Made by a program: the position numbers and the translations under genes. Under the pieces are notes generated by a model. It saw only the letters and a list, made by a program, of their open reading frames with translations. It was not told the origin of the DNA and did no database searches. From Chitinibacter bivalviorum (GTDB taxonomy: Bacteria; Pseudomonadota; Gammaproteobacteria; Burkholderiales; Chitinibacteraceae): a stretch of 64,000 nt of DNA. Of this stretch, positions 6,916-52,791 are shown piece after piece (position 1 is the stretch's first letter; every line of letters starts with the position of its first letter). The stretch spans positions 3,286,001-3,350,000 of the forward strand of contig NZ_CP058627.1 of assembly GCF_013403565.1 (NCBI RefSeq), written 5' to 3'.

Positions 6916-6991
6916 CGCGGGATGGAGCAGTTGGCAGCTCGTCGGGCTCATAACCCGAAGGTCACAGGTTCGAGTCCTGTTCCCGCAACCA
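6916..6991 (+). tRNA. tRNA-fMet (CAT), copy 2; attachment site host
   Basis: A second complete 76-nt initiator tRNA identical to copy 1, with the same C1:A72 mismatch and GGG/CCC anticodon stem. Its 3' 45 nt (from the anticodon loop at 6947) are repeated with two changes at 52096-52140, showing that this copy is the integration site of the island that follows. The spacer between the two tRNA copies already contains one TGTGCCCA motif (6860-6867). Confidence 0.95.
6947..6991 (+). other. attL: left attachment site of the genomic island
   Basis: This 45-nt stretch, from the anticodon loop to CCA, is the left copy of a direct repeat whose right copy is at 52096-52140. Forty-three of 45 positions are identical. 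Integration inside the 3' half of a tRNA with regeneration of the gene is the usual mode of tyrosine integrases, and an integrase gene lies 1.1 kb inside. Confidence 0.85.
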
Positions 6992-7001
6992 AAAATAAAA
7001 A

Positions 7002-7030
7002 AACCTAGGTCTCAAGCCTAGGTTTTTTTT
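7002..7030 (+). terminator. Rho-independent terminator after tRNA-fMet
   Basis: An AACCTAGG/CCTAGGTT stem with a TCTCAAG-type loop followed by a run of eight T residues. It is perfectly placed to end the tRNA transcript and is duplicated at about 52150-52180 in the second copy of this region. Confidence 0.85.
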
Positions 7031-7050
7031 CGTCTCGGATTTTTGCAATT

Positions 7051-7284
7051 TGGGCACAGAACCCGTCTGTGCCCATTTTTGTGCCCATCCTGTGCCCAAC
7101 TGATTTTTCACTGGCAGTAAAAAACACCCGTTTTGACCTTCGCCGATTTTTAAGAAAATGTGCCCAATTTTTATGGCCTTGACCTTCGGGCATTGTGCCC
7201 AAATTGCACGACTTTCAACATGACCTTCGCTTTTTTTCGGGGGCTTGTGCCCATGGTGGATTTTTTGGGCACAGGATGGGCACA
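7051..7284. repeat. Nine TGTGCCCA / TGGGCACA motifs (probable integrase arm sites)
   Basis: The octamer occurs in either orientation at 7051, 7068, 7080, 7091, 7159, 7194, 7246, 7266 and 7277. Four lie within 48 bp next to attL, followed by spaced single sites and a final close pair. Clusters of short repeats flanking the core of an attachment site are the usual arm-type binding sites for the integrase N-terminal domain. The same nine sites recur in the right-hand copy (about 52200-52440). There is no gene in this 400-bp stretch. Confidence 0.6.
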
Positions 7285-7361
7285 GAAATCTATCTCGTCT
7301 TTTGAGCTTAATTGATCCAAATTGCTGTTATTGCTGATCGCAAAAGCGAGGAAAAACAAGG

Positions 7362-7396
7362 CCTCGCAGTGAACGTCTGATTTTTCAACTGCGAGG
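7362..7396 (-). terminator. Hairpin terminator of the helix-turn-helix gene
   Basis: CCTCGCAGT/ACTGCGAGG form a perfect 9-bp stem; on the minus strand it is followed by a T-rich CCTTGTTTTT segment. It lies about 45 bp after the stop of the minus-strand regulator gene. Confidence 0.55.
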
Positions 7397-7442
7397 TCTG
7401 ATCGATTTGGCGGTCATTGAAATTTCACTACTGCGATTGCCA

Positions 7443-7673
7443 CTATTCTGTTTTTTCTCTGTTGGGCACTGCTTCGGGAACGTGCTCAAGCAGGTCTGAA
7501 ATCGAACAAGAAAAGTATGTGCAGAGTGCATCAATCACTTCAAGCTCAATTCTTTCCGCAGTCTCATGATAAAGGCGCGTAAGCGTCCCTCGATTTATTC
7601 CAGTATCACGGGCTAGGTCACTTATTTTTATCCTGCGTTCACCCATGATCTTTGATAGATGGCACTTAACCAC
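7443..7673 (-). CDS. XRE-type helix-turn-helix regulator (element repressor)
   Basis: A 76-residue Cro/CI-like protein. The segment RIKISDLARDTGINRGTLTRLYH (residues 14-36) is a standard helix-turn-helix, followed by IELEVIDALCTYFSCSISDLLEHVP, the usual helix 4-5 of single-domain XRE repressors. An internal ATG at codon 10 (7646) is a possible alternative start. It is divergent from the excisionase-like gene at 7824 across a 150-bp region filled with GATC-containing palindromes, so it probably represses itself and the excisionase/integrase operon. A truncated copy is at 52593-52791. Confidence 0.85.
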   Translation of the reverse strand: MVKCHLSKIMGERRIKISDLARDTGINRGTLTRLYHETAERIELEVIDALCTYFSCSISDLLEHVPEAVPNREKTE

Positions 7674-8039: not shown

Positions 8040-8051
8040 GGGGTGCTAAAA

Positions 8052-18678: not shown

Positions 18679-18750
18679 AATATGTTCCCTCTTTATGTCG
18701 AGTCTGAATCTTGTAGTGGCACACTGAATTTGGCTACTGCAAGCTCGGCC

Positions 18751-20508: not shown

Positions 20509-20561
20509 GCTGCTTTGTCCTGAGATTTCTGATTAGCAGTTTATAGTTATCGATGGTGGGC

Positions 20562-28708: not shown

Positions 28709-31700
28709 GCGTTGGGATCTCAAGCTTATTCGAACTTCCTACGATGCGAGGTACAACGACCGCCCATTGATCCATTTTGCAACTGGCTTGATATTCTTCC
28801 TTTTGAGCCAGCTTATCCATCACGACAATGGCATTCACTTCGGCAAAATCACATTCTTGCTGAAGACTAAATTTCTGGGCTGTGCGACCAACAACTTGTT
28901 CAAATTGATCAAGAAACTCATATCGACCATCAACTAGCTGCCGAACAGCAAGTCGATCACCATATTTCAACGCAGCTATTTGTTGGTGAATATCATGTGT
29001 AGAAGGTTTTCTACCGGCATATCCCAAATCAATTTCTCGTAAGGACAACGAGTGGTAGCGCATATTGAGTTGTGGATCAATTTTATACTCCCGTGCTTCT
29101 CGCATCATGCAAGTAGTGCGGTCTAGCAGTTTGCTGAATAAATGCTTTTTATCTGCGAATTCACACAGAGTCAGCGTTTGTTGGGCACGGGTCATGCCTA
29201 CATAGTAGAGCCGTCTTTCATCTTCAGTTTCTTTATTCCAACCACCATCGAGTACAACAACATGCTTGAACTCGAGTCCTTTGGCTGAATGTACCGTTCC
29301 TAAATAGAGCCCCGAATTACTGCGCTTTGTTTCTCGTGCATAGTCATAGAGCCAATCAACCAGCATCTCAATCGAGAGTTGGCAGTCGCCAAACTCAGCA
29401 GTCAGTTGTTCGCTCGCTTTCGTAAAGTAATCTATCCAATCTGGCTCAGTGCATCGCTCAAGCATGATGCGGAACGCATCTGTAATAGTGATTTCTTTTT
29501 GCTGTAGCTGGCGAACAGCATCAAGGGCCCGCACAAAATCTTGTTGGCGAGTAATTGGAATTTGGCGTTCTTTATCCGCCGCCATAATGTACGGAATATG
29601 GTTTTGCTCGCTCCATGCTTGAAATGGCAATAGATAATGATTGGTTCTAGCAAGGATTGCGCAATCGCTCCAGTTGCTACCTTCTTCGAGTTGAATTAAA
29701 CGACGCAATTCCGAGATCGCTGCTTGGCATTGAATATTTCCATGCTCTCGATCGTGCCCCGAAATACGCAAGCGAAGTACCTGGCCGCGCCTTTCGCCAT
29801 CAATCTCTTGCCAGCGTCCTCCAAGAAGATCCGCTGCGCGATTGTCATCAATCCGAATCGGATGCTCACTCTTAAGGCGTCCTTCGTTTGCGACAATCAC
29901 TGAGTTCGCAGCGTCAATGATGTTTCTTGTCGAGCGATAGTTTTCAACGAGGAACCGCTGCTCTGCCTGATAATCATTGCAGAACTGTTCAATGTATAAA
30001 TTACTAGTTTCGCGCCAAGAATATACGTTCTGATCGTCGTCTCCAACGGCCAAAATGGTTAGCTTGCCATCTTCTGATGATAACCGGCCAGCTAATGCAG
30101 AAACGAGGCGATACTGCCAATCGTCAATATCCTGATATTCATCGACCATGATATAGCGATAGCCTTCGAGTAGTTTATCGCGAAGCTCATCCTCGCCCTC
30201 TGCATTGAGTTTGCCCTCTAAAAGCAAAACAGCGTTGTGGAGTACCTGCTCAATTTCAGTCTCGGCAACGTCATTTCGCCCCCCGAAACTGATGCCCATC
30301 AGGCGCATCGCCATCGCGTGATAAGTCAAAACAGTGAGGCCAAAAGCATCGCTTCCAACGAGGGCGTACAAGCGTTTGCGAATCTCATTCGCAGCATGTC
30401 TATTGAAGGTAAGTACAATAATGCTACTAGCTGGAATGCGTTTGACTCTAAGCAGAAAGGCTACGCGATGAACGATCACCCTAGTCTTTCCTGAGCCAGG
30501 ACCTGCCAACACGAGGCGGTTAGTGTCATTCTCGTCAGTCACAATTGGATGTTGCGAGCGGCTCAATGGATCGACGATTTTTCTAAACGAAGACTCGCTG
30601 GTCGCTAACTCGAGAATCTCTTTCTTATGGCCAAAATAGCGTTTGATGAAGTCACGCTTGGGTAAGGTGAAATAGTCCATGACTAATTTGATTGCATCGG
30701 CCATTTCCTTGATTGCGACTTCGGCATATTCGCGCATCACATGGACTTGAACACGCTTTTCTGAGTAGTGCTCTTCCAGTGGTTGATAATCATCCTTCTG
30801 GTAGCGACGAAGTTGTTCATCATTGATTTTGATCGTCATGGCTCGACGCATGACTGTCATGCCGTGATTCAGGACAAGTACGTCTTCGTGGTGCAAATAC
30901 AGCAATACATGTTGAATGGCCGCGATACGTTTTTCAGGACGAGTTAGAGTTGATAGCTCAAGATCAAGCGTGATCACATCTACCAATTCACCAAGCGTGG
31001 TTTCAACGAGTTTGTCGCTCCCTTTCGTACCTGCAGGCAACTTACCAAGCAAAAATTCAAGTATTTTTTGAGCTATGACACGGCGTTTCTCCGCCATTTC
31101 TTCGATGTCCGACCAAGTTCTGTTCTTGCCCTTTATGCAAATCTTGAGCTGATCGCGACTGTGTTGACGGATGTCGAAACTACCTCGATGACGACCTTCC
31201 TCATCGGTATCTTGAGATAACGTTTGAAGTAACTGAGATACTTGCAGCGGTAGAACTTGCCGCTGTAAAACGGCACTTAGTTTTGTCGTTAATGCCGGAA
31301 GATTAATATCTTGCCATTCACCTTGATCTGCATCCGTTGCCCATTCTCGAAGCTCGGCAAATAACGCCACCTCAAGGGAAATTGAATTTTTCAACCTACT
31401 GTCCGATGCTCCTGCAATCCCCACCCTCAAGTACAGCGTGATTTGGGTGTCGTTGATCAATAAGCCCATATTTTCTAGCTGGCGCAAAATAGCGGTGACT
31501 TCATCCTGAGTCAAACCTGTATGCAGCATCAACTGATCTGTACTAACACGATCATCCGCTTTTGCGTCATACAGTATTGAGAGAATTGAGGTGTATTCTT
31601 GCTTTCTACGTTCGGGTAATTCTGCTGACTTCAGGGTTGCAATAGCTTCTTCTACGGTTTGGTGTTTTAGCTTTGCAGGAAAAACTTGGGTGTTATTTTC

Positions 31701-33866
31701 ATTACGCTGAAGAAAGTGAGCGCGTTCTAGCCACGCTACCGCAGTTGCTACTTTTGTTTCTGCATCGCGATCATCCGCTTCAAAGCTGGTATGAACGTAT
31801 TGATCATTCAATATCTCCCCCGCTGTGATAATGAGCTGACCATCATGACGGCGTTTCGCCGCATTTCGCAGTTTTTTTAGTATCTGCTCGATATCATTTT
31901 TAGTTAGCCGAGAGCGCTCGCTTAAGCGAAATTGGGTCTCAATGTCAGACGGGTCATAAAGCAGCACACAACGTGCGTGCTCTTGATCTCTACCCGCCCG
32001 TCCTGCTTCCTGTAAGTAATTTTCCAATGAGCCAGGAATTTCTGCATGAATGACAATACGAATATCCGATTTATCAACCCCCATGCCGAAAGCATTGGTT
32101 GCGACAATGACACGTAACTCACCTTGAATAAATTCATCTTGGATATCTTTTTTTAGCTGAGGAGGAATGCCCGCATGAAAATGCTGGCATGCCCAACTTT
32201 GTTTCTTCAAAAACTCAGCCAGCTCCTCTGCAGACTTCCTGCTCGCAACAAATACGACCGCTCCACCTTTTGTGTGTTCGAGTTCTGCCTTGAGTAATTG
32301 GTGTGTTCGATGCCATTTTTCGCCCTTGCTGCTTGGCATCACTTCGAAGTCGAGATTAGTACGTTCGTGGCCACCTTTGAAAGGTGTTAATTCAACATTA
32401 AGTTCACGTTTGAAATGCTCATTGATGTCATCCAGTACTTCTAGCTTGGCTGTGGCAGTAAAGCAGCCGATCGGTGAAATCGGATGTGTACCACTGAAAT
32501 CGCGAATAAAACGGGATGCATACAGATAATCTGGCCTGAAATCATTCCCCCATTTAGACAGACAGTGAGCCTCATCAAAAATCCAAGCATTGATCTGGCG
32601 ATGCTCGATCGCACTGCGAAATGCTTTGTTTCGGAACTGCTCAGGGGAAACAAGCAGAATACCGACATCACCCATCTGAATTTTTTCAAGCGTATCTGCA
32701 CGTTCAGGCATTGTGAGCATGCCATTGAGCGTAGCTGCACTTTGAATATTATTCGCCACCATGCCATCCACTTGATCCTTCATTAAGGATTGCAGCGGGG
32801 AAATGATTACTGTTAAACCGCCATTACGATGGAAGCGGTTTAATGCCGGGATTTGATAGCAAAGTGATTTGCCTCCACCCGTAGGAAGAATGGCCAGAAC
32901 ATGTTCACCTCTCATCCCTGCCAAGACGATGTCTCGTTGCAAACTTTCGCCGGTTTGATTTTTTGGTACAGGACGAAATGAGTCATAGCCAAAGTATCGC
33001 TTCAATTCATGCTCTGGATTGTGCGTCGTACTGCAGTATTGGCACTTGGGGTCACCACAGGGTTTATCACGCAGATCTATAAGCAGGGCGGTGACTTCAG
33101 GGAATTGATAGCGGACCCACGGCGCCAAGACGGAGTTGCCACCAGATACTCGCAACCATGCAATCGAGTATGCAATAGGCCAATACATTGCTGGATTACT
33201 TAGATCATCGTTTACTAGTCTTGATAACCGTTGTCGGCAGACTTTTAAATCTCGAGCCAAAGTAGGGTCGTTTTCACGTAAGAGTTCCGGAATCATTGCT
33301 CTTAACTCATCAAGATCGGGTGCTTTCTGATGTGTTTGCGAGAGCATGTAATTACCTAATCCGGGCCCTGGTTGAGCTGCAATTAAGGCATGGTAAACAC
33401 GTAACTCTTCCTTGGAAATTTCATTTAGCTTTTCAAATGCCTGGCGCTGATCATTAAACAAAGTCAACGTTGCATGGCAATCAGCAAGGGGTGAGTTAAT
33501 ACTGTCTCGAATGAGTTTGTAATTCTTGATGAGGCGATGATAGGGGTTTTGTGGGAAGGCTAAGGGTGATAGTCGCAGAGTATCAATTACCGGTAGATTC
33601 AATAACGCCAGTTCGGGGGCTATGGCCCTCAAAATGGGTAAATCATGTTCAAGTATATTGTGTCCCATCACAAAGCTAGCACCAACCGAAAGTCGATCCA
33701 ACTCTTGCAATGCAGCGGCGAGATTTTTTGCGGAAACCTTCAGTTCCAAGGACTCATTAATGTCCGGGCGCAAAGCTCCAATTTTGATGATTTTATCTGG
33801 TGCGTTATTTATGCCTGGTATGACCTCCAGATCAAAGATCAGTGCTTTAGGGTTTGGAACTGACAT
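28680..33866 (-). CDS. Exonuclease-RecQ-UvrD fusion helicase
   Basis: A 1728-residue protein. Residues 1-170: DEDD-like exonuclease (ALIFDLEVIPG; HNILEHDLPIL; LADCHATLTL). Residues about 310-720: RecQ helicase (PTGGGKSLCYQIPA with Lys333; FDEAHCLSKWGNDFRP; EAGRAGRDQE). Residues about 1110-1600: UvrD/PcrA-type superfamily 1 helicase (LAGPGSGKTRVIV with Lys1127; VDEYQDIDDWQYRLV; GTVHSAKGLEFKHVV; YVGMTRAQQTL). The ATG at 33866 is preferred because the exonuclease begins just after it; longer starts up to 33926 exist and no strong ribosome site decides. Two motor classes on one chain is unusual. Convergent with the exonuclease gene. Confidence 0.9.
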   Translation of the reverse strand: MSVPNPKALIFDLEVIPGINNAPDKIIKIGALRPDINESLELKVSAKNLAAALQELDRLSVGASFVMGHNILEHDLPILRAIAPELALLNLPVIDTLRLSPLAFPQNPYHRLIKNYKLIRDSINSPLADCHATLTLFNDQRQAFEKLNEISKEELRVYHALIAAQPGPGLGNYMLSQTHQKAPDLDELRAMIPELLRENDPTLARDLKVCRQRLSRLVNDDLSNPAMYWPIAYSIAWLRVSGGNSVLAPWVRYQFPEVTALLIDLRDKPCGDPKCQYCSTTHNPEHELKRYFGYDSFRPVPKNQTGESLQRDIVLAGMRGEHVLAILPTGGGKSLCYQIPALNRFHRNGGLTVIISPLQSLMKDQVDGMVANNIQSAATLNGMLTMPERADTLEKIQMGDVGILLVSPEQFRNKAFRSAIEHRQINAWIFDEAHCLSKWGNDFRPDYLYASRFIRDFSGTHPISPIGCFTATAKLEVLDDINEHFKRELNVELTPFKGGHERTNLDFEVMPSSKGEKWHRTHQLLKAELEHTKGGAVVFVASRKSAEELAEFLKKQSWACQHFHAGIPPQLKKDIQDEFIQGELRVIVATNAFGMGVDKSDIRIVIHAEIPGSLENYLQEAGRAGRDQEHARCVLLYDPSDIETQFRLSERSRLTKNDIEQILKKLRNAAKRRHDGQLIITAGEILNDQYVHTSFEADDRDAETKVATAVAWLERAHFLQRNENNTQVFPAKLKHQTVEEAIATLKSAELPERRKQEYTSILSILYDAKADDRVSTDQLMLHTGLTQDEVTAILRQLENMGLLINDTQITLYLRVGIAGASDSRLKNSISLEVALFAELREWATDADQGEWQDINLPALTTKLSAVLQRQVLPLQVSQLLQTLSQDTDEEGRHRGSFDIRQHSRDQLKICIKGKNRTWSDIEEMAEKRRVIAQKILEFLLGKLPAGTKGSDKLVETTLGELVDVITLDLELSTLTRPEKRIAAIQHVLLYLHHEDVLVLNHGMTVMRRAMTIKINDEQLRRYQKDDYQPLEEHYSEKRVQVHVMREYAEVAIKEMADAIKLVMDYFTLPKRDFIKRYFGHKKEILELATSESSFRKIVDPLSRSQHPIVTDENDTNRLVLAGPGSGKTRVIVHRVAFLLRVKRIPASSIIVLTFNRHAANEIRKRLYALVGSDAFGLTVLTYHAMAMRLMGISFGGRNDVAETEIEQVLHNAVLLLEGKLNAEGEDELRDKLLEGYRYIMVDEYQDIDDWQYRLVSALAGRLSSEDGKLTILAVGDDDQNVYSWRETSNLYIEQFCNDYQAEQRFLVENYRSTRNIIDAANSVIVANEGRLKSEHPIRIDDNRAADLLGGRWQEIDGERRGQVLRLRISGHDREHGNIQCQAAISELRRLIQLEEGSNWSDCAILARTNHYLLPFQAWSEQNHIPYIMAADKERQIPITRQQDFVRALDAVRQLQQKEITITDAFRIMLERCTEPDWIDYFTKASEQLTAEFGDCQLSIEMLVDWLYDYARETKRSNSGLYLGTVHSAKGLEFKHVVVLDGGWNKETEDERRLYYVGMTRAQQTLTLCEFADKKHLFSKLLDRTTCMMREAREYKIDPQLNMRYHSLSLREIDLGYAGRKPSTHDIHQQIAALKYGDRLAVRQLVDGRYEFLDQFEQVVGRTAQKFSLQQECDFAEVNAIVVMDKLAQKEEYQASCKMDQWAVVVPRIVGSSNKLEIPTPNNAFAAEY

Positions 33867-34156
33867 TAAGCGATTAACTTCGTAGGAGTAGCCAATGCTT
33901 AATTTTGCACCAAACATTACAAACAAAAAACGTTTACTTGCCGTAAGTGATGGTTATTTTACAGATTGGGATTCTAAGAGAGTTACTCATGCATTATCGC
34001 CCAGGGCTTTGGTCTGACCATAAAGCCCTCTCAGCATCCGAGCCCCAGACATTTGTGAATACGTTGACAAAAAGTGGCTCGACATATCTTTCATTATTAT
34101 TACGACTAGTGTTGAGCTAAAATCTGTGTACTTAGCTTTTCACTCCCAACTTTTCT

Positions 34157-41765: not shown

Positions 41766-42482
41766 TCATGCGGTAAACAATCCACTAGAATTGAATGAAA
41801 TTATTTTGCCAAAAATATTTTTATTTTCCCCCGGTATTTTTGATTTTACCTCAATATAACTTACGGTTATTAATCTATTTGTGCTCAATGCGCGCATCAA
41901 ATCAGGATATTGCTCCGGCTGGTACATTAATTTAATTCCATTCGTACCCGGGGTTTTTCCAGATATTACGAAGCTATCAAACTTGACCTCGTCAACTTGA
42001 ACTTCAGCGATTGTCTGTTCATTGCTTTCTACTTCAAGTTCTCGCCGCGCGAGCTTTGAAATAGGTATTTCTTTTCCATCTACCCGAGTCAATTTTTCTG
42101 GGGTGCTAGCACCCATTCTAAGTTCCATCATAATTTTTGCCGCGTGAAGTTCTTCATTTGATAGCGGTGGAATCTCTTTGTTATTAATCAAGCTTTCGTA
42201 TAACCGGTCTGAGTTCCCAATAGTTCTAATAATTCCATCATGGATAAGATCGGATATCTCTGAATTTGTTCCTGTCGCTCCTAGTGAAAGCTTGATAAAC
42301 ATTTTCTCATCTTTTATTAATATTTCAGTATTGATTATTTTGAAGATTGATTTAATGCTCCTTGCCACCGCATCGGCTTCTCTTTTTGCTTTTTCTGGGC
42401 TAAAGACAATTTCACCGCAGTCATTCTCTTTGACAGGAACATTTAGCTCATAGATTTGACAGTTGGCAGTATGGTTTTTCAT
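41766..42482 (-). CDS. Hypothetical protein
   Basis: A 238-residue soluble protein (MKNHTANCQIYELNVPVKEND start) whose family I do not recognise. It is rich in Lys, Glu and Ile, with a GTNGIKLMYQPEQYPDLMRALS segment and no membrane parts. GAGAG lies before the ATG at 42482; a longer frame to 42524 is possible. It is convergent with the exoribonuclease and its upstream region faces the palindrome array at 42696. Confidence 0.6.
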   Translation of the reverse strand: MKNHTANCQIYELNVPVKENDCGEIVFSPEKAKREADAVARSIKSIFKIINTEILIKDEKMFIKLSLGATGTNSEISDLIHDGIIRTIGNSDRLYESLINNKEIPPLSNEELHAAKIMMELRMGASTPEKLTRVDGKEIPISKLARRELEVESNEQTIAEVQVDEVKFDSFVISGKTPGTNGIKLMYQPEQYPDLMRALSTNRLITVSYIEVKSKIPGENKNIFGKIISFNSSGLFTA

Positions 42483-42695
42483 ATAGTAACTCTCATATTT
42501 AATCATCTGAAAAAAGCATATCACCTCTGTACTGAAAATGCATTTTCCTGGCCTGTATTAACGCCGTACATGCATTTAGATAAATTGAAATCTAGAGTTT
42601 TGTTGTGATATTTGGATGAAGTGAAGTGTACAAGCTCAAATTTATGTACTGATTGAATATTGTAATGATCTATCAAGTCGTGTTTTGCCCATAGT

Positions 42696-43170
42696 AGTTT
42701 ATACGTATAAATCGGGTGCGGTGGCTGGGTCAGTTTATACGTATAAATCGGGCATGATGGCTGGTCAGTTTATACGTGTAAATCGGGGTCGATGGCTGAG
42801 TCAGTTTATACGTATAAATCGGGCGCGGTGGCTGGTCAGTTTATACGTGTAAATCGGGGTCGGTGGCTGAGTCAGTTTATACGTATAAATCGGGCGCGGT
42901 GGCTGGTCAGTTTATACGTGTAAATCGGGGTCGATGGCTGGTCAGTTTATACGTGTAAATCGGGGTCGATGGCTGGTCAGTTTATACGTGTAAATCGGGG
43001 TCGATGGCTGTTCAGTTTATACGTGTAAATCGGGGTCGATGGCTGAATCAGTTTATACGTATAAATCGGGGTCGATGGCTGAGTCAGTTTATACGTGTAA
43101 ATCGGGGTTGGTGGCTGGTCAGTTTATACGTATAAATCAGGGGGCCGCAGTTGAGTCAGTTTATACGAAA
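42696..43170 (+). repeat. Tandem array of 13 palindrome-bearing 35-36 bp units
   Basis: Thirteen complete units plus a degenerate fourteenth begin with AGTTTATACG and are 35 or 36 bp long. The core is the perfect palindrome TTTATACGTATAAA in units 1, 2, 4, 6, 11 and 13 and the one-base variant TTTATACGTGTAAA in units 3, 5, 7, 8, 9, 10 and 12. The spacer (ATCGGGG-like, then GGTGGCTG or GATGGCTG, then GTC) is also conserved, so this is a tandem amplification and not a CRISPR array, whose spacers differ. The last unit decays into TTTATACGAAAAAA. It ends 120 bp before an XRE regulator gene. Regulator-binding iterons are the most likely meaning. Confidence 0.9.
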
Positions 43171-43214
43171 AAACCACGTTCGACGTGCAGTGTATAGATT
43201 CTGACTCGGTGCAG

Positions 43215-43252
43215 ATTAAATGCTGTATTTATGCTCATTTACAGCATTTAAT
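43215..43252. promoter_or_regulatory. Perfect 13-bp inverted repeat before the regulator gene
   Basis: ATTAAATGCTGTA (43215-43227) and TACAGCATTTAAT (43240-43252) form a perfect 13-bp dyad with a 12-nt loop, 38 bp before the start codon at 43290. It differs from the array palindrome, so it could be a second operator or an RNA hairpin in the leader. Confidence 0.6.
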
Positions 43253-43289
43253 AAAGTCGCGATTATGGCTGCACACAAACGGAGGACAT

Positions 43290-44591
43290 ATGAAAAAAGG
43301 CCGGCCATCATTCAAGCTAGATACTCAGTACTTACGCAGACTTCGCAAAGAACGACAGCTCACCCAGAGCGCAATGTCTAAAGCTATTTCCTCTCACTAT
43401 CCTAGCTGGGGTTGTAATGGTCAAAGTTCAGAGGAAACGATGACCGCCGACTATCAGCGTATTGAAGCAAAAGGACGCACAAGCCCGCAGGTTGCAGAGG
43501 TAATTGCAAAAGTATTGGATGTTCCAATTGCATTTCTTCAAGGAGAAGTACTTCCTGATTCTGCTGAATACCTTAAGAAAATTACACTATTGCTTAATGA
43601 TCAGATTGCCACGGGAGAAAACAAAAAACTAATGTTGGCGTATTCAGAATTTGAGAAGGCAAACGCAGGAAAAGGGCTTGAGCGCTTAGCCGAAGACATC
43701 AGTAAGCGCATAGAAGTTGTACAACTTGGCCGGAACCCTTCTGAGCTTGCGGATCTCATTGAATATACAGGGTTAAGCAAAACTGAAATTCTTATGCCTG
43801 CAAATTGTGATGGGCATTGGTTTGTAACGACAACCTTTCGAGAAAGTTATCGTGTTGACATTCTGCAAAGTACGGTGGGTATTTGGGGTTATATTTGCGA
43901 TCGCTTTAAAGAGTTTCCCCGCCTGCCAACTTCAGACGAAAGTGTTCGAATTTGGCGCGACGGATTTTGGTACCGAATTGAAATATATTTTCCATTATGC
44001 CATAGCCCCGCACGCATTGATTTTGTTCGTTGTGAGGCGAATGAACATGGTGTTCGATGGTGTAAACCGATGCAGCGAGATGAGCTGTCCATCTTATCCC
44101 TGTTAAAGGATTGGTCATTCCATTCCTTTAATTTCAGCACTCTCTTTGATGGGGCTCCTACACCACAGACAGTTGAGCAATTGCGATTCAAAATAATCGA
44201 ATTTGAAAATGGTAGCTATGGCGACGTTATCGATACTCAATATGTCGCTGTAGATTTAGATGAGTTCCGTATCCATCAGGATCGTAATAAAAATCGTGGA
44301 CACAGTCACCGTCTGCTTACTGAATGGCTACTCTATGAGCTGAAGAACAAGCTGTATCCGATTTTGATAACGTATCCGTCTGAATATTGGTCGGTTTCAG
44401 GGGGCGAGCATATTGAAATTTTCCTTAAACCATCATACGCGGATCGACACATTGGTATTGGAATCCGTTATCGGATCCAATTAGTAGAAGAACTTCCATC
44501 AGGAAAAAATGAGTCTGCTCCATGGCGTTATGTAGATATCGAGCGAGCAAAGAAAACAATTGAATCTTGGCTAATCTCTTCGCGAAATTAG
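43290..44591 (+). CDS. XRE-type regulator with unknown C-terminal domain
   Basis: A 433-residue protein. Residues 1-90 hold a helix-turn-helix (YLRRLRKERQLTQSAMSKAISSHYPSWG; then TMTADYQRIEAKGRTSPQVAEVIAKVLDVPIAFLQGE), interrupted by an extra loop. The remaining 340 residues are a domain I do not recognise, with DGHWFVTTTFRESYRVDILQ and IWRDGFWYRIEIYFPLCHSP. The start follows GGAGG at 43281-43285. Location after 13 palindromic repeats suggests autogenous control. A 27-residue peptide gene follows 99 bp later. Confidence 0.8.
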   Translation: MKKGRPSFKLDTQYLRRLRKERQLTQSAMSKAISSHYPSWGCNGQSSEETMTADYQRIEAKGRTSPQVAEVIAKVLDVPIAFLQGEVLPDSAEYLKKITLLLNDQIATGENKKLMLAYSEFEKANAGKGLERLAEDISKRIEVVQLGRNPSELADLIEYTGLSKTEILMPANCDGHWFVTTTFRESYRVDILQSTVGIWGYICDRFKEFPRLPTSDESVRIWRDGFWYRIEIYFPLCHSPARIDFVRCEANEHGVRWCKPMQRDELSILSLLKDWSFHSFNFSTLFDGAPTPQTVEQLRFKIIEFENGSYGDVIDTQYVAVDLDEFRIHQDRNKNRGHSHRLLTEWLLYELKNKLYPILITYPSEYWSVSGGEHIEIFLKPSYADRHIGIGIRYRIQLVEELPSGKNESAPWRYVDIERAKKTIESWLISSRN

Positions 44592-44621
44592 TGACCTAGA
44601 TTTTTTTCGATTAATTAATTC

Positions 44622-44655
44622 GATTGTGTTGGGGAGGGCTCGGACTGACACAATC
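44622..44655 (+). promoter_or_regulatory. Stem-loop between regulator and peptide gene
   Basis: GATTGTGT (44622-44629) can pair with ACACAATC (44648-44655) around an 18-nt loop containing GGGGAGGGC. It lies 36 bp before the peptide start and could be an attenuator or part of the promoter region. Confidence 0.35.
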
Positions 44656-44690
44656 AGCCGATATGCCGAGTCAAACTTAGGAGAAATATC

Positions 44691-44774
44691 ATGACATTAC
44701 ACTTAGAAAATGGGCCAAGTACTACTGGCAAACCCTCTGGTGGTGGTCGTGGCAATAACCCGCCACGGAAATAA
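44691..44774 (+). CDS. Micro-peptide, 27 aa, Gly/Pro-rich basic tail
   Basis: A 27-codon gene beginning MTLHLENGPSTTGKP and ending SGGGRGNNPPRK, then TAA. AGGAG (44679-44683) is placed well before the ATG, which supports translation. It has no cysteine, no signal peptide and no membrane segment; half of it is Gly/Pro/Asn. A strong hairpin follows the stop. The pairing of an XRE-family regulator with a tiny peptide recalls peptide-regulator systems, but no such role is shown. Confidence 0.6.
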   Translation: MTLHLENGPSTTGKPSGGGRGNNPPRK

Positions 44775-44790
44775 AAAGGCTATTAAACGA

Positions 44791-44806
44791 GGAGGGTATG
44801 CCCTCC
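44791..44806 (+). terminator. Hairpin after the micro-peptide gene
   Basis: GGAGGG-TATG-CCCTCC is a perfect 6-bp GC stem with a 4-nt loop, 16 bp after the peptide stop. There is no T run, so it may be a processing or stability hairpin rather than a classical terminator. From here to 45504 (about 700 bp) I see no secure gene; a 14-bp direct repeat AATCTTCGGTGCCA occurs twice (near 44959 and 45147). Confidence 0.4.
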
Positions 44807-45504
44807 CCGCACATCGAGAAAAACGACTAAAAATTTGTAACGTCTCAATTGCGTATTCTTAGTCATTTAGCAATTCTAAATTAACCAATATCACCACAAG
44901 CAACTATGCATTTATCCAGCACTTGAAGAGTACAGCACCCGCCCCTGTGCCAACTCTCAATCTTCGGTGCCATGGGAGACTGGTAAGGGAATTGAGCGGG
45001 TTCTCAATCCGCCGCTGTCAAACTTCGATAAATCGGTCAAAGTTGCCAATTGTGTGCGTGGAGGATAGCAGCAAGCAATCCGCCTTGACGTAAGTAATGC
45101 GTAATGCAAGAATCCGTAATTTAAGCTTGGGCAATAAGATGTAAAAAATCTTCGGTGCCAAAGTTGTCAGTGTACCTGATCGCATCTGTGTGTGACTAAT
45201 CGGATGCTTTTACGCATCCAAAATTGGATTGCACTATTGCCTCCGCCAAAAATGAAGGGCGACTATTGCAACTCAGGAAGATCTATAAAATGGAAGCGTG
45301 AAGGTATCGTCGGTAATCTCTGGTCAATAAATTCAGCTGGGAAGCTGGTCGCTGAAGAAATAAATCAGAATGCGCAGTGCTTTTCAAAGACTAAAGATAA
45401 ATGCAAAAAAGAATATGATGATAGTGATATTTAGAGTGAATAGTTAGACTATTTCATTGCAATGCTAACTTGTATTACATCTTTAATTAAGCTCAGGAAA
45501 TGAC

Positions 45505-46218
45505 ATGATCGAAATGCTATCAATTTGTGTGAATTTTCTTCTAAGAACCATCAAACCTAAGCCGGAATATTCAAACATTCCCAATGAAATCCCACTAAAA
45601 ATTTGCCACACAAACTCAAAAGTACATTACAGCTATATAGAATCAATACGTTCTAGCAACAATGGAAAAATTATTTCAGGCGGAGGGACTAAGTACGCAA
45701 CATACAACCAGAAACAATATACCTTTCTTGCAAATAATCCATATAATGAAAAAATATCGTATTACGCTAAAGTTGCACTATTTGAAGATAAGGAACAAGG
45801 TATTGTTGACAACTATTTTTATATCAACATTGAAGATGTTCAGCCAGGGCATACGCTATCTGAAAAATTAGATATTCATCGCGCCCAAGAAAATTATTAT
45901 TTGATCGAGTTGGTGATAAAAAATTCACGTGGAGAAATAATTAGCCATAAGCAAGACTTGGATTGGAACTTCTGTCACGAAGCGCTCTATAATATGACTC
46001 AAAAAGAGTATGACAACATAAAATCAACAATGAAATTTGTTAAGTCTATTTCGGTGGTTGTGCTGGCTGTTGCACTGTTGTGCCTTATTTTGCCAGTGGT
46101 TTCAATTCTCCATCTTATCATGCCATGGTTTGTTTTTTGGCCGCTTTTATTTATTGGGGCTTATTTGATGTATTTTATGGTTATGGATAAGGTTTTTGCT
46201 CGCAATAATATAAAATAG
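45505..46218 (+). CDS. Membrane protein of unknown function
   Basis: A 237-residue protein. Residues 1-180 are soluble (KVHYSYIESIRSSNNGKIISGGGTKYATYNQ; YFYINIEDVQPGHTLSEKL), followed by two adjacent membrane spans (VVVLAVALLCLILPVVSIL and LLFIGAYLMYFMVM). AGGAAATGAC precedes the ATG. The low-GC codon use differs from the flanking arms. The next 337 bp (46219-46555) hold no gene. Confidence 0.6.
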   Translation: MIEMLSICVNFLLRTIKPKPEYSNIPNEIPLKICHTNSKVHYSYIESIRSSNNGKIISGGGTKYATYNQKQYTFLANNPYNEKISYYAKVALFEDKEQGIVDNYFYINIEDVQPGHTLSEKLDIHRAQENYYLIELVIKNSRGEIISHKQDLDWNFCHEALYNMTQKEYDNIKSTMKFVKSISVVVLAVALLCLILPVVSILHLIMPWFVFWPLLFIGAYLMYFMVMDKVFARNNIK

Positions 46219-46555: not shown

Positions 46556-49500
46556 TCAGTCGATCTTCAATTCAACCTTCAAGGCCCAAAGTGCCAATAT
46601 GTGATGCATTTCAGTCTGGCTTAACTGCCTTGATGTGACTTTCTGCTGGGTGGTAGTGTGAAATTGTCCAAGTCCATTTTTTTTATGAAGTTTATCTCGA
46701 AGCTTGTATGCGCGCCGGTAATTGGTAAAGGAGGTTGCTTCGCTAGATTCAGTTGTTGCCGATCGCTTATGGTATTGTGTTTTTATAGTCCATACAGTTT
46801 TATGAGCTCCGATCGCGTGCAGAAACACTTCCCATAATCTGCAATCTTCAGGCTTTGATAAGTGTAAGCCTGTATTTCTAGGTCGATAATTATCCCTCCA
46901 AATTTGAAGTATTGTTTTGGCGGAATCTGGTTCTCGCGCGAAATAGGCATTGATTTGATCGCATAAGGCGTTATAGAAATTATTGTCTAGGTAGCCATGC
47001 GTTTGTGCCGTACCGAATCGTAAATAACCAGTGTCTGCTACCAATTTGTTATATGCCAATTGCAATTGCGATGCTTGCCGATTGGGCAACCCAAAATGTA
47101 TTGAAATCTCTTCTATCGAAATTCCTTTAATCATTCCTTCTATCGCGAGTTGCAATAATTTTAGGCTGAAAATCCCGGGGTGCTGCCTTGGCGGTAAGGT
47201 TGGTAGTACATGGTTGTGTAGTACCAACTCTTGCTTGGCAACACCTTGTCGTTTTAAAGCTGATTGAATTAACTCCGATGTAAATAAATGCGGCTGATCT
47301 TTGGTGCGGCCACGGCGCATCTTGATGGCACCGACAGTTAAACCTGTCCATTGTGCTAACTGGCGATCGCTAGGGCACGTCAATGCGCATTTTTGGCTGT
47401 GGAGTGAGAATGCCAAATCTAGGCTATGTGTATAAGCGCCGAAGGTAGTATCAAGGTGCGCATGCCCAAGGTGTGTGCTGATTGCATGCAGCAGCCGGCG
47501 AGAAGAGTATGTTGGACCAAGCCATTGGCGTTCAAGCGCCCCCGCCTGACCAGGAAACCATGCGCTTAATTGGTTATGGTTTTCCAAATGATGCGTAGTA
47601 CTCACATATATGGCCGCACTCGCAAAGGTGTGTCGCGCATGGTGAATACGACAGGCCGGATTACCTGTTGCAATTTTGAGTGCTTGTAACAGTCGTTGTG
47701 AAAGACGAAAACGTGAGATACGTTCTTCGTGATTATCACTCTTACAAAAAATAGGTACATCCTTATGCCCATGAAACCGTGCATTTAATGTAGTTAGACG
47801 CAGTTTTAATATTTCTAGCTCATCTTCCGTCATCGTCCAACATGGCAACTGTCGGAATCCAGAGCTGGATTTAGGACGCCCCCATTTATTTTGCCGTACA
47901 TAAACTGTCGGCAATTGATCGATAAACACAAGGTCTCGCAGAGTTAATCTGAAACACTCTCCAATCCGCAGGCCGAACCGGAATATCAAAATTAACGCCA
48001 GAGTTTGCAATTCAGCCTCTTCAATTTCCGCATGAACATCTGTTCGAAGTAGGCTTTTTGCATTTTGGTATTCTTGTACCGTAATGATTTGTGCATGAAC
48101 AAGCGAAGTGCTGCCTGCAAACGCCGGATCTAGCTTTTCGAAGTCAACAATCGCAGCATCAAAATGCGTGATCAAATAATCGTGAAAATAGCGTATGCGT
48201 GTGCCAAGCCTGCCTCTGCCTTCGGTATTTTTGCTGTAATTCAGTGCTTGCAAATACGTGTCAGCAAAGTCCTCGCTTTCAAGATCGGCAAAATCATCGT
48301 TCCAAGCAAGTTCAAGCAGTGGATTGCCGACTGTGAATACATAATCGTAAACCGTGCTGGCCGCAAAATAGTGCCCATGAGATTTCTTTTTAAGGACACT
48401 TTTAGCATAGTGAGCGAGTAGGTGCAGTACCGAGCAAATGCCAAGCTCTGACCAAGCGTCTATTAATTGATCAATTGCTTTTGCTGTATTGGTACGATTT
48501 ACTGTGCCTTGGGAGCCCGCATGCAGATGTTGGGAAGTATCTACACCAACAAAGGCTCGAACTATTTTCTGTAAATCACTTAAAGCTTTCTTCTGAATCT
48601 TGAAATCGGTATTGAGCTTGTGCTGAGCTGGGAATGCTCGAGGCGCATCATCCTCAAGGTCTTTTAGTTGTTCACTTCGTTGATCACTTAAGATTCGTAT
48701 TAGATTGTTTTTAGGGATGGCCCAAGTTTTTATTTCGTCACAAGCATAACTTGCGAGGACGCCCGGTAAATTGTGACGTTGCCAAGCACGCATGGCGGTC
48801 TCAATGGCAGTCAGATATTGAGTTCGCTTTTGATCGCGCCATTGTGTTACAAGGTCGAATTGTTCTCCGAGTATGTCGCTTAGACTTGTGTGAATTTCTC
48901 TTATGGGCGGAATTTCGGTTTTACGGCCATAAATCTCAGTTAGTAATAGGATCGACAACATCCCAGGCCACCAACGAAATTGGCGCTTCTGCTTATCCTG
49001 CCATTCAAGCCAGCAGTGTTGTCTGAAGTGCGTCAGTCCATGCTGAGTTACCGCCTCAAGCGCTGCAAATAAGTGGTTTTTATTCGTAATCCCTGTCTCG
49101 ATGCTCAAAGCCAAGATGGCCCAAGCCGATAGCTCTGGGAGTCGCATTAAGCTAGGTTCTGCTGGGAAATTTCTAGTAAATTCAGCTCTGAGCCATTCCG
49201 CACGCTGCACCCAAATCAAATGATCATATGCCACTGAAGATGGTTCAGAAGAAAGACCATCCAAAACAAAACCGCTATGATATTTACCTGCTGACTTGAT
49301 TCTCAGATAACGTTTTAACACATTTAGTGTCTGTATTTTACTTTGCGTGCTAGTGTCGGGGTGCGTGAGAATCGCATTTTGGACTTCCTGTTGCAAGGAC
49401 TTATTTTCCAGTAATTCCTTCCATGAGCGCTCCCTCAATACTGAATTAATCAAGGGTTTTACCTGGTTTAAGGTAAGGGTGGCTTCGGGGGAAATAATGC

Positions 49501-51868
49501 GTGGTATAGGCCCCGATCGTAGTTCTGCACGAGAATAAGCAGTGGGTATTTTTTTCTTATTTATTACCCTAATTCCAGGGTGTGGGTAAAAGCCTAATTC
49601 AGTTAACCATGCGTCAACGGCCACATCCCACTGCTCGATAATATTATTTGGGGGACATGACATGCTGCTAGACCACGGTTGCTGCCCCGCTTGAATATGG
49701 CCTGCCGCACCAGAAACCCATTCTCCTGGCAATCCTTTGTCTCTAAGAGCACTAATAAACCAGTGCCTTGGTAGGTTACTTGGCCAAAGTCCTGTTTTTC
49801 CTAGCCATCCAATCACTTCTGCGGTTCCCAATTTTTTGAGATCACGACCAAGTTGCATCGGTAGTAAGAAGAAATAATTAACCTTGCCTGATAGCAGAGG
49901 CAGTGAGTCCATGCGCCCAATCTCTCCCGCAAGTGACACATCGATATAAGCCAACCTTTGCGCTAACCCGCGTAAATGTTGGGAATACAACTGCATCTGT
50001 TTTTGCACTATTGGACTTAGGCGCACCAACCTGGCTTGATGGCCTTCATCAATCACTTTGTCTCGAATGATGGACCACCCGGAATCATCAAGCGTAGATA
50101 AGGTAAAACTGAATTGATCCGCGGCTCGATGACCCGTAGCGCATTGCAACATCCATGCGGTGTAGCAAGCCATATGCGCGTGAGCTAGAACTAGTTCGGA
50201 ATAGTCACACGGCAAAGGCAGCTCATCGATTGCACGCATGCGGATGAGTTGCTCGGATAAAACTTGAGTATGCTTGCTTGGAGAGAGAAATAACCGGCTA
50301 CCGAAGCGGTCTGGTCGAGTACAAATGGGGATAATTTCTAACCCGAGTTTAAGTAACTGCGCTGAATATCGCGCGACTAGTTCATTACTCGGTATTGAGT
50401 AATAGTAATAGCCTACGGTTGGTGCAAATTGAACCGTATTGACAACGAGACTAGCCAGTAACTCGTCACCATGCTCACGTACTTCCGCATCAAAGAGAAT
50501 TCTTCGAAGTCTGGCATAGGTCGCTCGAAGTGCCGGCGAAGTTTCGCGCAATGATTTTAGCCAGAGGCTCATTGCTGCTTCAGCTTCGTTTGGAGAATTG
50601 AGATGTAATGTTTCTGCTAGGCTCTTTGTGTCCAAGTCAGTTATTTCTAGCAGCATGCTGTACATCAACGTGGGTACAGGGAGAATTAACCAATCGTGCT
50701 GCAGCTCAAACTCAGCTTTTTGAACTGAGGTTGGCGTAAAACGCCCTGGGAAATCTGGAAATCCTCGCCCCCAGTGCCCATCCCTGAGGTTAATTTGTAG
50801 TCCAGGCAAATGATCCCACTCCGTGACAAAACGGGTCTGTAGTAATTCGTTTAGATCTACAGAGCAGGAAAGCGTGATTAAAGCTAATAAAGCTCCCGTC
50901 CGATGCTCGGGGAGAATCTCTGTTTTCAGTCCCTGAATGATGCAATTCAGGTCATATTCATTCAGAGATTCCCATGCCCAAGGAAGGTAATTATTTTCTC
51001 GGGCCGTACGATAGCGAGCTTCGCGTAATCGAGCATATTGACCAAAGGTGCCGAGCTCAGATGGCGCTTCTTCCGGTTCTTCGACAATGAGTTCAATGCG
51101 TGGCTCGTCAATGTCGAGATCTTTGGGGGGAAGATAGACAGCTCGCGTAATCGGATTTTGTATGTTTAAACGAGAACGGGCGGTGCCTTTATGAGGCAAA
51201 TCCGATCGTTGGATGGGTACCTTTTGCAGGATAGGCTCAAATGCTGTAAATCCAGCAAACGAGCCATGTAATAACTTGAGCCCTTTTATGCAGTGATTCA
51301 GTGGATGTTGCGGATCTGCGGCGTCTTCAATAAGAATGGCTAATTGTTCGGATGGCGCTGTCGTAAATTTCCAATCACAATCGTAACTTCCTTTTAGAAG
51401 CCTCCTGATCCCTGCGCAGACTTCCAAAATCGCATTAGGTATGCGCTCAAATTTATTGGTACACCAAATAAATACCGCAGCCTGTAAAAAGCGTGCGATT
51501 TGTAACTGTTCCGGAGAATAAGGGGTGCTAGTGACAGTCCAGGTTGTTATTAAAGGACGATCTTTGACTCTGTGCTTTATCGATGTTGAATATGTTCTAG
51601 GAATTAATTTGGGATAAGTAGTACTAAGTTGTTTCAAGCGAAGTAGCGCATTAATTGCACTTCTGTGTGCATTGGACAGATGTGCTTCAGTCCATTGGGA
51701 TGTCTTGAAAATAGCAGAAAGAGCTCCGACGGTCTCATGGAGTTGATCAATATCTTCCTTTAGTCCAAGAACTGACTTAACCAATTCAGCTATAGATTCT
51801 GCGTCTTGTGGGGATACCGTGTTCAATTCAACAACAAACTTGTTTAGATCTGGTAGGTCTTGATCCAC
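46556..51868 (-). CDS. Giant protein with two tyrosine-recombinase-like domains
   Basis: A 1770-residue protein, several times the usual integrase length. Domain B (about 1280-1490) is a good tyrosine recombinase: GLRIGE with Arg1301, IHHARH with His1409/Arg1412, HLGHAHLDTT with His1469, and Tyr1479 in GAYTHS. Domain A (about 565-735) echoes it with ATGHRAAD (Arg581), NLPRHWF (Arg701) and AAGH (His724), but lacks the first His of HxxR (Asn698) and has no Tyr about 10 residues after His724. The N-terminal 500 and C-terminal 280 residues match nothing I know; a helix-turn-helix-like IEEISIHFGLPNRQASQLQLAY lies near 1590. It lies next to attR, in the island, opposite the canonical integrase. Confidence 0.75.
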   Translation of the reverse strand: MDQDLPDLNKFVVELNTVSPQDAESIAELVKSVLGLKEDIDQLHETVGALSAIFKTSQWTEAHLSNAHRSAINALLRLKQLSTTYPKLIPRTYSTSIKHRVKDRPLITTWTVTSTPYSPEQLQIARFLQAAVFIWCTNKFERIPNAILEVCAGIRRLLKGSYDCDWKFTTAPSEQLAILIEDAADPQHPLNHCIKGLKLLHGSFAGFTAFEPILQKVPIQRSDLPHKGTARSRLNIQNPITRAVYLPPKDLDIDEPRIELIVEEPEEAPSELGTFGQYARLREARYRTARENNYLPWAWESLNEYDLNCIIQGLKTEILPEHRTGALLALITLSCSVDLNELLQTRFVTEWDHLPGLQINLRDGHWGRGFPDFPGRFTPTSVQKAEFELQHDWLILPVPTLMYSMLLEITDLDTKSLAETLHLNSPNEAEAAMSLWLKSLRETSPALRATYARLRRILFDAEVREHGDELLASLVVNTVQFAPTVGYYYYSIPSNELVARYSAQLLKLGLEIIPICTRPDRFGSRLFLSPSKHTQVLSEQLIRMRAIDELPLPCDYSELVLAHAHMACYTAWMLQCATGHRAADQFSFTLSTLDDSGWSIIRDKVIDEGHQARLVRLSPIVQKQMQLYSQHLRGLAQRLAYIDVSLAGEIGRMDSLPLLSGKVNYFFLLPMQLGRDLKKLGTAEVIGWLGKTGLWPSNLPRHWFISALRDKGLPGEWVSGAAGHIQAGQQPWSSSMSCPPNNIIEQWDVAVDAWLTELGFYPHPGIRVINKKKIPTAYSRAELRSGPIPRIISPEATLTLNQVKPLINSVLRERSWKELLENKSLQQEVQNAILTHPDTSTQSKIQTLNVLKRYLRIKSAGKYHSGFVLDGLSSEPSSVAYDHLIWVQRAEWLRAEFTRNFPAEPSLMRLPELSAWAILALSIETGITNKNHLFAALEAVTQHGLTHFRQHCWLEWQDKQKRQFRWWPGMLSILLLTEIYGRKTEIPPIREIHTSLSDILGEQFDLVTQWRDQKRTQYLTAIETAMRAWQRHNLPGVLASYACDEIKTWAIPKNNLIRILSDQRSEQLKDLEDDAPRAFPAQHKLNTDFKIQKKALSDLQKIVRAFVGVDTSQHLHAGSQGTVNRTNTAKAIDQLIDAWSELGICSVLHLLAHYAKSVLKKKSHGHYFAASTVYDYVFTVGNPLLELAWNDDFADLESEDFADTYLQALNYSKNTEGRGRLGTRIRYFHDYLITHFDAAIVDFEKLDPAFAGSTSLVHAQIITVQEYQNAKSLLRTDVHAEIEEAELQTLALILIFRFGLRIGECFRLTLRDLVFIDQLPTVYVRQNKWGRPKSSSGFRQLPCWTMTEDELEILKLRLTTLNARFHGHKDVPIFCKSDNHEERISRFRLSQRLLQALKIATGNPACRIHHARHTFASAAIYVSTTHHLENHNQLSAWFPGQAGALERQWLGPTYSSRRLLHAISTHLGHAHLDTTFGAYTHSLDLAFSLHSQKCALTCPSDRQLAQWTGLTVGAIKMRRGRTKDQPHLFTSELIQSALKRQGVAKQELVLHNHVLPTLPPRQHPGIFSLKLLQLAIEGMIKGISIEEISIHFGLPNRQASQLQLAYNKLVADTGYLRFGTAQTHGYLDNNFYNALCDQINAYFAREPDSAKTILQIWRDNYRPRNTGLHLSKPEDCRLWEVFLHAIGAHKTVWTIKTQYHKRSATTESSEATSFTNYRRAYKLRDKLHKKNGLGQFHTTTQQKVTSRQLSQTEMHHILALWALKVELKID

Positions 51869-52095: not shown

Positions 52096-52140
52096 CTCAT
52101 AACCCGAAGGTCATAGGTTCGAGTCCTATTCCCGCAACCA
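52096..52140 (+). other. attR: displaced 3' half of tRNA-fMet
   Basis: Forty-five nt from the anticodon loop CTCATAA to CCA, identical to 6947-6991 except for two changes: C to T in the 5' strand of the T-stem and G to A in the 3' strand. The two changes are paired, so the T-stem stays intact as ATAGG/CCTAT. There is no 5' tRNA half upstream, so this is a fragment left by integration. Confidence 0.85.
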
Positions 52141-52791
52141 AAAATGAAAAAACCTAGGTCTCAAGCCTAGGTTTTTTTTCGTCTCGGATTTTTGCAATTT
52201 GGGCACAGAACCCGTCTGTGCCCATTTTTGTGCCCATCCTGTGCCCAACTGATTTTTCACTGGCAGTAAAAAACCCCCATTTTGACCTTCGCCGATTTTT
52301 AAGAAAATGTGCCCAATTTTTTATGGCATTGATCTTCGGGTGTTGTGCCCAAATTGCACGACTTTCAACATGACCTTCGCTTTTTTTTGGGGACTTGTGC
52401 CCATAGTGAATTTTTTGGGCACAGGATGGGCACAGAAATTTATGTCTTCTTTGGCGCTAAATTGATGCAAATTGCTCTTGTTGCTGATTGCTAAAGTGAA
52501 GAAAAACAGGGCCTCGCAGTGAACCTCTGATTTTTCAGCAGCGAGGCCTGATCAATTATGCGGTCACTGAACTTTCACAACAGCGATTACCACTATTCTG
52601 TTTTTTCGCTATTGGGCACAGCTTCGGGAACGTGCTCAAGCAGATCCGAAATCGAACAAGAAAAGTATGTGCATAGCGCATCAATCACTTCGAGCTCAAT
52701 TCTTTCCGCTGTCTCATGATATAGGCGCGTAAGCGTCCCTCGATTTATTCCAGTATCACGAGCTAGGTCACTTATTTTTATCCTGCGTTCA
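52141..52791. repeat. Long direct repeat, copy 2 (left end of an older element)
   Basis: Nearly identical to 6992-7641: the same terminator (52152-52180), nine TGTGCCCA/TGGGCACA sites (about 52200-52440), the same spacing of blocks and the start of the same repressor gene. It ends abruptly at 52791 inside that gene. Confidence 0.85.
52593..52791 (-). pseudogene. Truncated copy of the element repressor
   Basis: From ERRIKISDLARDTGINRG onwards the frame is almost the same as the protein at 7443-7673 (ends PNSEKTE instead of PNREKTE). The first 10-12 codons are replaced at 52791 by unrelated sequence, so the native start and operator are missing. A chimeric open frame continues to 52853 but has no family-like N-terminus. 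Confidence 0.75.

What the first reader, a model, noticed from the sequence alone, without database searches (positions are those of the whole stretch)
42696..43170. Thirteen tandem TTTATACG(T/C)-palindrome units in front of a regulator gene
The units are 35-36 bp, carry a 14-bp perfect palindrome or one-base variant, and the two core types appear in a partly alternating order. Spacers are conserved, so CRISPR is excluded. Thirteen binding sites upstream of one gene is far more than a normal operator needs. This could be an iteron-type origin control, a titration array, or a recombination platform. The only other large DNA-acting protein near it is the 1770-residue double recombinase.
Basis: partly seen in the sequence, partly recalled or inferred. 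Interest (0 to 1): 0.9.

Follow-up and report, generated by a model that had tools for sequence, protein, structure and literature searches.

The report
Lineage-specific tandem palindrome array on island
A run of thirteen near-identical 35-letter DNA repeats, each carrying a small palindrome, sits between two genes of a likely mobile island; the three relatives of the neighbouring regulator that could be read lack it, so it is probably a recently amplified protein-binding site and not that regulator's standard switch.

Summary
The array is real: 13 copies of TTTATACGT(A/G)TAAA at 42698-43136 plus a degenerate 14th (43160-43173), 35-37 bp apart. The exact core occurs nowhere else in the 3.68-Mb genome. 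It lies in a 45-kb tRNA-Met island, between an orphan gene (41766-42524, minus) and an XRE-type regulator gene (43290-44591).

The link to the regulator is not supported. In 4 of 4 loci another inverted repeat (window 43216-43251; weak in one locus) starts 73-75 bp before the regulator's start. All four also carry a conserved 27-28-residue reading frame after the regulator gene. The array DNA was not found in 42 other genomes of the family or 398 of the order (overlapping sets).

Best reading: a recent tandem amplification of one palindromic protein-binding site, possibly acting locally on the two divergent promoters. A neutral minisatellite is not excluded. CRISPR is excluded; titration of a wider regulon and an iteron origin find no support. 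The conserved regulator-plus-peptide module is the more interesting by-product.

The parts
42696..43173 (+). tandem array: 13 units of 35-37 bp with core TTTATACGT(A/G)TAAA plus a degenerate 14th core
42698..42711 (.). first perfect 14-bp palindromic core (others: 42734, 42805, 42876, 43052, 43123); one-base variants at 42769, 42840, 42911, 42946, 42981, 43016, 43088
43160..43173 (+). degenerate 14th core TTTATACGAAAAAA at the right edge
43216..43251 (.). inverted repeat TTAAATGCTGTA-N12-TACAGCATTTAA; an inverted repeat at the same distance from the start is seen in 4 of 4 loci (weak in G653, of other sequence in Thauera); probable autoregulatory operator or promoter element of the regulator (inferred)
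   Evidence: inner part unique in own genome
43290..44591 (+). XRE-type helix-turn-helix regulator, 433 aa, C-terminal part without a recognised family
44691..44774 (+). 27-residue reading frame MTLHLENGPSTTGKPSGGGRGNNPPRK with an AGGAG before it, conserved after the regulator gene in 4 of 4 loci; translation inferred
41766..42524 (-). divergent gene on the other side of the array, 252 aa, orphan
6947..7641 (+). left direct repeat: 3' end of a tRNA-Met plus flank; left end of the island that holds the array (inferred)
52096..52791 (+). right direct repeat, 93% identical to the left one; right end of the island and start of a second island remnant (inferred)

Best explanation
The array is a recent, element-specific tandem amplification of a 35/36-bp unit that carries one dimer-type protein-binding palindrome (TTTATACGT(A/G)TAAA), in the divergent control region between an orphan gene and an XRE regulator gene on a 45-kb tRNA-Met island. 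Shown: the array, its single occurrence in the genome, its absence from three related regulator loci and from the sampled relatives, near-identity of inner units and degeneration at the right edge. Inferred: that the palindrome is a binding site of a homodimeric DNA-binding protein of the element, that copies multiplied by slippage or unequal crossing-over, and that the array acts locally as a multi-site roadblock, insulator or dosage element on one or both divergent promoters. It is not the standard operator of the regulator; the inverted repeat at 43216-43251 most likely is.
For: Array and units. Exact core only in the array among 3.68 Mb; no excess of near-matches elsewhere (28 forward matches at up to 2 mismatches, 14 of them the array, control 28). 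Exact 14-bp palindromes occur 45 times in 400 kb of the same chromosome, 0.11 per kb, so one in a given 36-bp unit is a chance of about 0.4% (post hoc). Array absent from 3 of 3 related regulator loci although an inverted repeat at -73 to -75 is present in 4 of 4. Array DNA in 0 of 42 other family genomes, 0 of 398 other order genomes (overlapping set), no match in phage and plasmid records nor in viral contigs. Inner units nearly identical; units 13 and 14 at the right edge the most divergent.
Against: No binding protein is identified. Core conservation over spacer is weak: 1 of 14 core columns variable against 10 of 23 spacer columns (Fisher P 0.027) becomes 1 of 14 against 6 of 22 (P 0.21) without unit 13, so selection on the core is not shown. 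The one-base variant breaks the palindrome in 7 of 13 units. A spacing of about 35.5 bp is not a whole number of helical turns, so sites do not lie on one face of the DNA (inference). The nearest relative of the regulator, 99% identical (P0001), could not be read at DNA level.
Confidence: 0.42

Rival explanations
1. Neutral minisatellite: a 35/36-bp unit that happened to hold a palindrome multiplied by replication slippage, with no present function.
For: Seen in one genome only; 71-bp dimer period and identical neighbours show copying; core not significantly more conserved than spacer once unit 13 is left out; order of core types not beyond chance.
Against: An exact 14-bp palindrome in the unit is improbable by chance (0.11 per kb). 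Only one array in the 400-kb sample scores higher.
Confidence: 0.32
2. Extended operator array of the XRE regulator 43290-44591, which would bind each palindrome and set its own dose or that of the divergent gene.
For: Position upstream of the gene; HTH domain like phage repressors and restriction controllers, which bind palindromes (family knowledge).
Against: Absent from 3 of 3 related loci. Another inverted repeat is present in 4 of 4. The two motifs resemble each other only loosely (by eye).
Confidence: 0.14
3. Iteron or centromere-like site for maintenance of the excised island, as in plasmids whose DNA-binding stability protein binds repeats upstream of its own gene.
For: Repeats confined to one place; element is mobile-looking, with integrase at 8043-9305 and att-like repeats.
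Against: No replication initiator, ParA-like ATPase or StbA-like protein recognised beside it by Pfam or PHROGs; array missing where the regulator is on a plasmid (L012); spacing not in helical phase (inference).
Confidence: 0.06
4. Array transcribed as a structured repeat RNA on the plus strand.
For: Plus strand folds better than shuffles (z -9.2), more so than the minus strand (z -5.25). In 12 of 13 units both stems considered stay paired on the plus strand with G-U allowed; on the minus strand 11 of these 12 have a mismatch.
Against: Tandem palindromes pair with each other in any case; three variable stem positions give about 1 in 8 by chance (my estimate) and one stem was picked after looking; unit 13 breaks it; the 4 single units folded alone do no better than shuffles; promoter-like sites are at chance level; no Rfam family at gathering score.
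Confidence: 0.06

Closest known systems
Intergenic minisatellites (VNTR loci) of bacteria (recalled)
   Same: Head-to-tail copies of one 35-36-bp unit, near-identical inside and degenerate at one edge, lineage-specific in what was sampled.
   Different: Each unit carries a 14-bp palindrome or one-base variant that looks like a dimer binding site.
StbA/stbDR of plasmid R388 (PMC3098194, passages read)
   Same: Repeated short sites around one promoter region of a mobile element; there bound by an element-coded DNA-binding protein.
   Different: stbDRs are two sets of five 9-bp direct repeats two nucleotides apart and also occur in other promoters of the plasmid; here 13 palindromes are 21-23 bp apart, occur nowhere else, and no StbA-like protein was recognised beside them.
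Type III antitoxin RNA arrays (ToxI-like; search listing with abstracts, detail recalled)
   Same: Tandem units of about 36 bp upstream of a gene.
   Different: Downstream gene is a 433-aa XRE protein with no toxin family match; no terminator-like site of the plus strand between array and gene; single units do not fold better than shuffles.
RRNPP regulator-peptide pairs such as PlcR/PapR and ComR/ComS (search listing with abstracts, detail recalled); concerns the neighbouring module, not the array
   Same: XRE-type HTH gene followed directly by a short reading frame.
   Different: C-terminal part is predicted mixed alpha/beta, not an all-helical TPR fold; the short frame shows no secretion signal by eye; the named relatives are a Thauera (Betaproteobacteria) and a Zoogloea, not Firmicutes.

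Membership tests
CRISPR array | repeats separated by unique spacers | tested here: not met
   Spacers are near-identical.
CRISPR array | cas genes nearby | tested here: not met
   None among the proteins scanned with Pfam between 28683 and 51868; PADLOC's 'poss. alt. Cas3' match of 28683-33926 falls on its helicase part.
Operator of the neighbouring XRE regulator | site conserved in front of homologous regulators | tested here: not met
   Array absent in 3 of 3 readable relatives; another inverted repeat present in 4 of 4.
Operator of the neighbouring XRE regulator | regulator binds the site | not testable with these tools
   Needs a binding assay.
Iteron origin / partition centromere | replication initiator or partition protein gene adjacent | tested here: inconclusive
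   No such Pfam or PHROGs match for the three genes in 41769-46215, but the orphan 41766-42524 could not be assigned.
Titration (decoy) array | same motif at other sites in the genome | tested here: not met
   0 exact cores and no excess of matches at up to 2 mismatches outside the array. More degenerate sites were not tested.
Type III toxin-antitoxin | downstream ToxN-like endoribonuclease | tested here: not met
   Downstream gene is an XRE protein; no toxin family match.
Type III toxin-antitoxin | repeat unit folds as a pseudoknot RNA | tested here: inconclusive
   4 single units fold no better than shuffles; pseudoknots are not modelled.
Bacterial minisatellite | tandem copies of one unit, high internal identity, lineage-specific | tested here: met
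Bacterial minisatellite | copy number varies between strains | not tested
   No second strain with the array could be read.
RRNPP pair (neighbouring module) | HTH plus TPR receptor fold | tested here: inconclusive
   HTH clear; the C-terminal part is predicted alpha/beta, but that part was not folded and searched alone.

The most novel reading that the evidence does not exclude
The array and the regulator-peptide unit form one switch of the island: the XRE protein controls itself through the inverted repeat, senses the 27-residue ...PSGGGRGNNPPRK product of the next gene, and in this lineage the amplified palindromes act as a copy-number-tuned element that sets the threshold of the divergent genes. 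That would be a peptide-responsive regulator outside the Firmicutes with a tandem-repeat tuned output.
Probability: 0.06. Interest if true: 0.75.

Novelty: new member of a known kind. Interest (0 to 1): 0.35.

Why it matters
If the palindromes are bound, this is a case of a mobile island changing regulation by multiplying one binding site, testable by deletion and by strain-to-strain copy number. If not, it warns against assigning arrays to the nearest regulator: comparison with relatives separates the recurring inverted repeat from the lineage-specific array. The conserved regulator-plus-short-peptide module next to it is a concrete lead in its own right.

Tried and rejected
Searches that led nowhere: array in viral contigs, plasmid and phage records; regulator in viral contigs and phages and in 99 other genomes drawn as relatives; first scan of genome contigs with the single sequence; giant recombinase in viral contigs; orphan neighbour in plasmids, phages, 398 other order genomes, viral contigs and the protein set, where its one match is the same gene; short peptide in plasmids by tblastn (it misses even the Thauera plasmid copy, so that search is insensitive) and by DNA pattern in viral contigs. 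Literature listings showed no comparable array; only passages of one paper were read. This is no claim that none is in print.

Rejected: CRISPR (spacers conserved); coding repeat (the mix of 35- and 36-bp units shifts the frame); arm sites of the island integrase (array lies about 9 kb from the nearer island end; inference). The class search with the regulator profile also gave three weak matches limited to the HTH part (3 of the 368 other genomes), not counted as relatives. The PDB and viral fold searches gave no match at E 0.001 or better for the whole model (mean pLDDT 82, pTM 0.60); the rows of the second look cluster on the HTH part, residues 8-89, which leaves the C-terminal fold untested. 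The terminator-like and promoter-like sites near the array are at chance frequency.

Limits: only 3 relatives could be read, with 10 kb, 6 kb and 1.5 kb of upstream DNA examined. In one search at most two candidates per genome were scored. The 99%-identical regulator (P0001) lies on contigs that no tool here could fetch. Two further stretches fetched around relatives (L017, L018) were not analysed.

Full report
What is there. Thirteen copies of TTTATACGT(A/G)TAAA start between 42698 and 43123, 35 or 36 bp apart, and a degenerate fourteenth follows at 43160. Six cores are perfect 14-bp palindromes; seven have one change that breaks the symmetry. Spacers are near-identical: TCGGG, a variable stretch of five, TGGCTG, zero to one base, then (G/A/T)TCAG; unit 13 is the exception. 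TRF describes the same array with periods 35 and 71. Window shuffles give 0.2 matches on average against 14 seen. In a 400-kb sample of the same chromosome TRF gives 18 rows of score 50 or more; one scores higher (1623) and the next best has 282, against 702 here.

Where it is. The window lies in a 3.58-Mb contig of a 3.68-Mb genome. The array lies between direct repeats that begin with the 3' part of a tRNA-Met, at 6947 and 52096; these repeats extend over about 695 bp at 93% identity. An integrase gene lies just inside the left end (8043-9305). I read this as a 45-kb genomic island, with the right repeat starting a remnant of a second, related one (inference; no empty site was examined). The array fills about 60% of the 765-bp gap between a minus-strand gene (41766-42524) and the regulator gene (43290-44591). 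The minus-strand gene is an orphan: its only match in a set of 5.8 billion proteins is the same gene, and 398 other genomes of the order have none.

A conserved neighbour. In 4 of 4 loci the regulator gene is followed by a 27- or 28-residue frame with an AGGAG-like site before it: window MTLHLENGPSTTGKPSGGGRGNNPPRK, with the others sharing PSG.GR.NNPPRK. Between window and Zoogloea the last 13 codons differ only at third positions, seven times (read by eye), which points to selection on the peptide. In the three relatives another small frame follows: 67 and 69 residues in Zoogloea and Thauera, and in G653 a GTG-started frame whose first part is alike. It resembles HicA only weakly (Pfam E 0.13, below cut-off, in one of three). 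No such frame is seen by eye in the six-frame translation of that place in the window.

What the array may do. A titration array needs other targets, but the exact core occurs only in the array and near-matches outside it do not exceed the control. No replication or partition gene was recognised among the genes scanned beside it. The plus-strand RNA folds better than shuffles, and the variant stems stay G-U compatible on that strand but not on the other; but tandem palindromes fold in any case, 4 single units do not fold better than shuffles, and three positions prove little. Selection on the core over the spacer is suggested only if unit 13 is counted (P 0.027 with, 0.21 without). The alternation of core types is within chance. 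What remains is a recently amplified palindromic site, with either a local role on the divergent promoters or none.

How widespread. Array DNA was found in this genome only: 0 of 42 other family genomes and 0 of 398 other order genomes (at most two candidates scored in each; the sets overlap). Plasmid and phage records and viral contigs gave nothing. The protein search shows a 99%-identical regulator on three contigs (P0001), but their DNA could not be fetched, so unit number in a second strain is untested.

Verdict. The interpretation as the regulator's operator, an origin or a titration array is not supported by what could be tested; a recombination platform was not tested. I rate the array as a new member of a known kind (tandem repeat with a binding-site-like core), interest 0.35. 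The adjoining regulator-peptide module deserves a look of its own.

Noticed in passing
window 44691-44774; L007 11396-11479; L012 7364-7450; L016 about 1224-1307 (-): A 27-28-residue reading frame ending ...PSG.GR.NNPPRK directly after the XRE regulator gene in 4 of 4 loci, with third-position-only changes in its last 13 codons between window and Zoogloea; possible peptide partner of the regulator.
   Followed up: partly
L007 11532-11735; L012 7515-7724; L016 from about 1150 (-): A small frame (67 and 69 residues in two of three loci) with weak, below-cut-off resemblance to HicA in one follows the peptide in the three relatives but was not seen in the window.
   Followed up: partly
window 46556-51868 (-): 1770-residue protein with a tyrosine-recombinase domain at residues 1289-1418 (Pfam) and what looks by eye like a second, degenerate one in the middle; only partial relatives in plasmid records.
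   Followed up: partly
window 6947-7641 and 52096-52791: About 695-bp direct repeat at 93% identity beginning with the tRNA-Met 3' end: ends of a 45-kb island and probable remnant of a second one; the 5 other genomes of the genus also match parts of this region.
   Followed up: partly
window 28680-33926 (-): 1748-residue protein joining a DEAD/Helicase_C part and a UvrD-type helicase part, with many PADLOC matches to DpdF and GajB models.
   Followed up: no
window 16942-21674 (-): Genes for an AIPR protein, an unassigned 585-aa protein and a Cap4-type nuclease: possible defence cluster.
   Followed up: no
L007 9498-9514 and 11736-11752: 17-bp exact inverted repeat GTTATGCAACAACGCCG around the Zoogloea regulator-peptide module: it may move as a cassette.
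   Followed up: no
   Followed up: no
window 42534-42547: Another perfect 14-bp palindrome, GAAAATGCATTTTC, just before the start of the orphan gene on the other side of the array.
   Followed up: no
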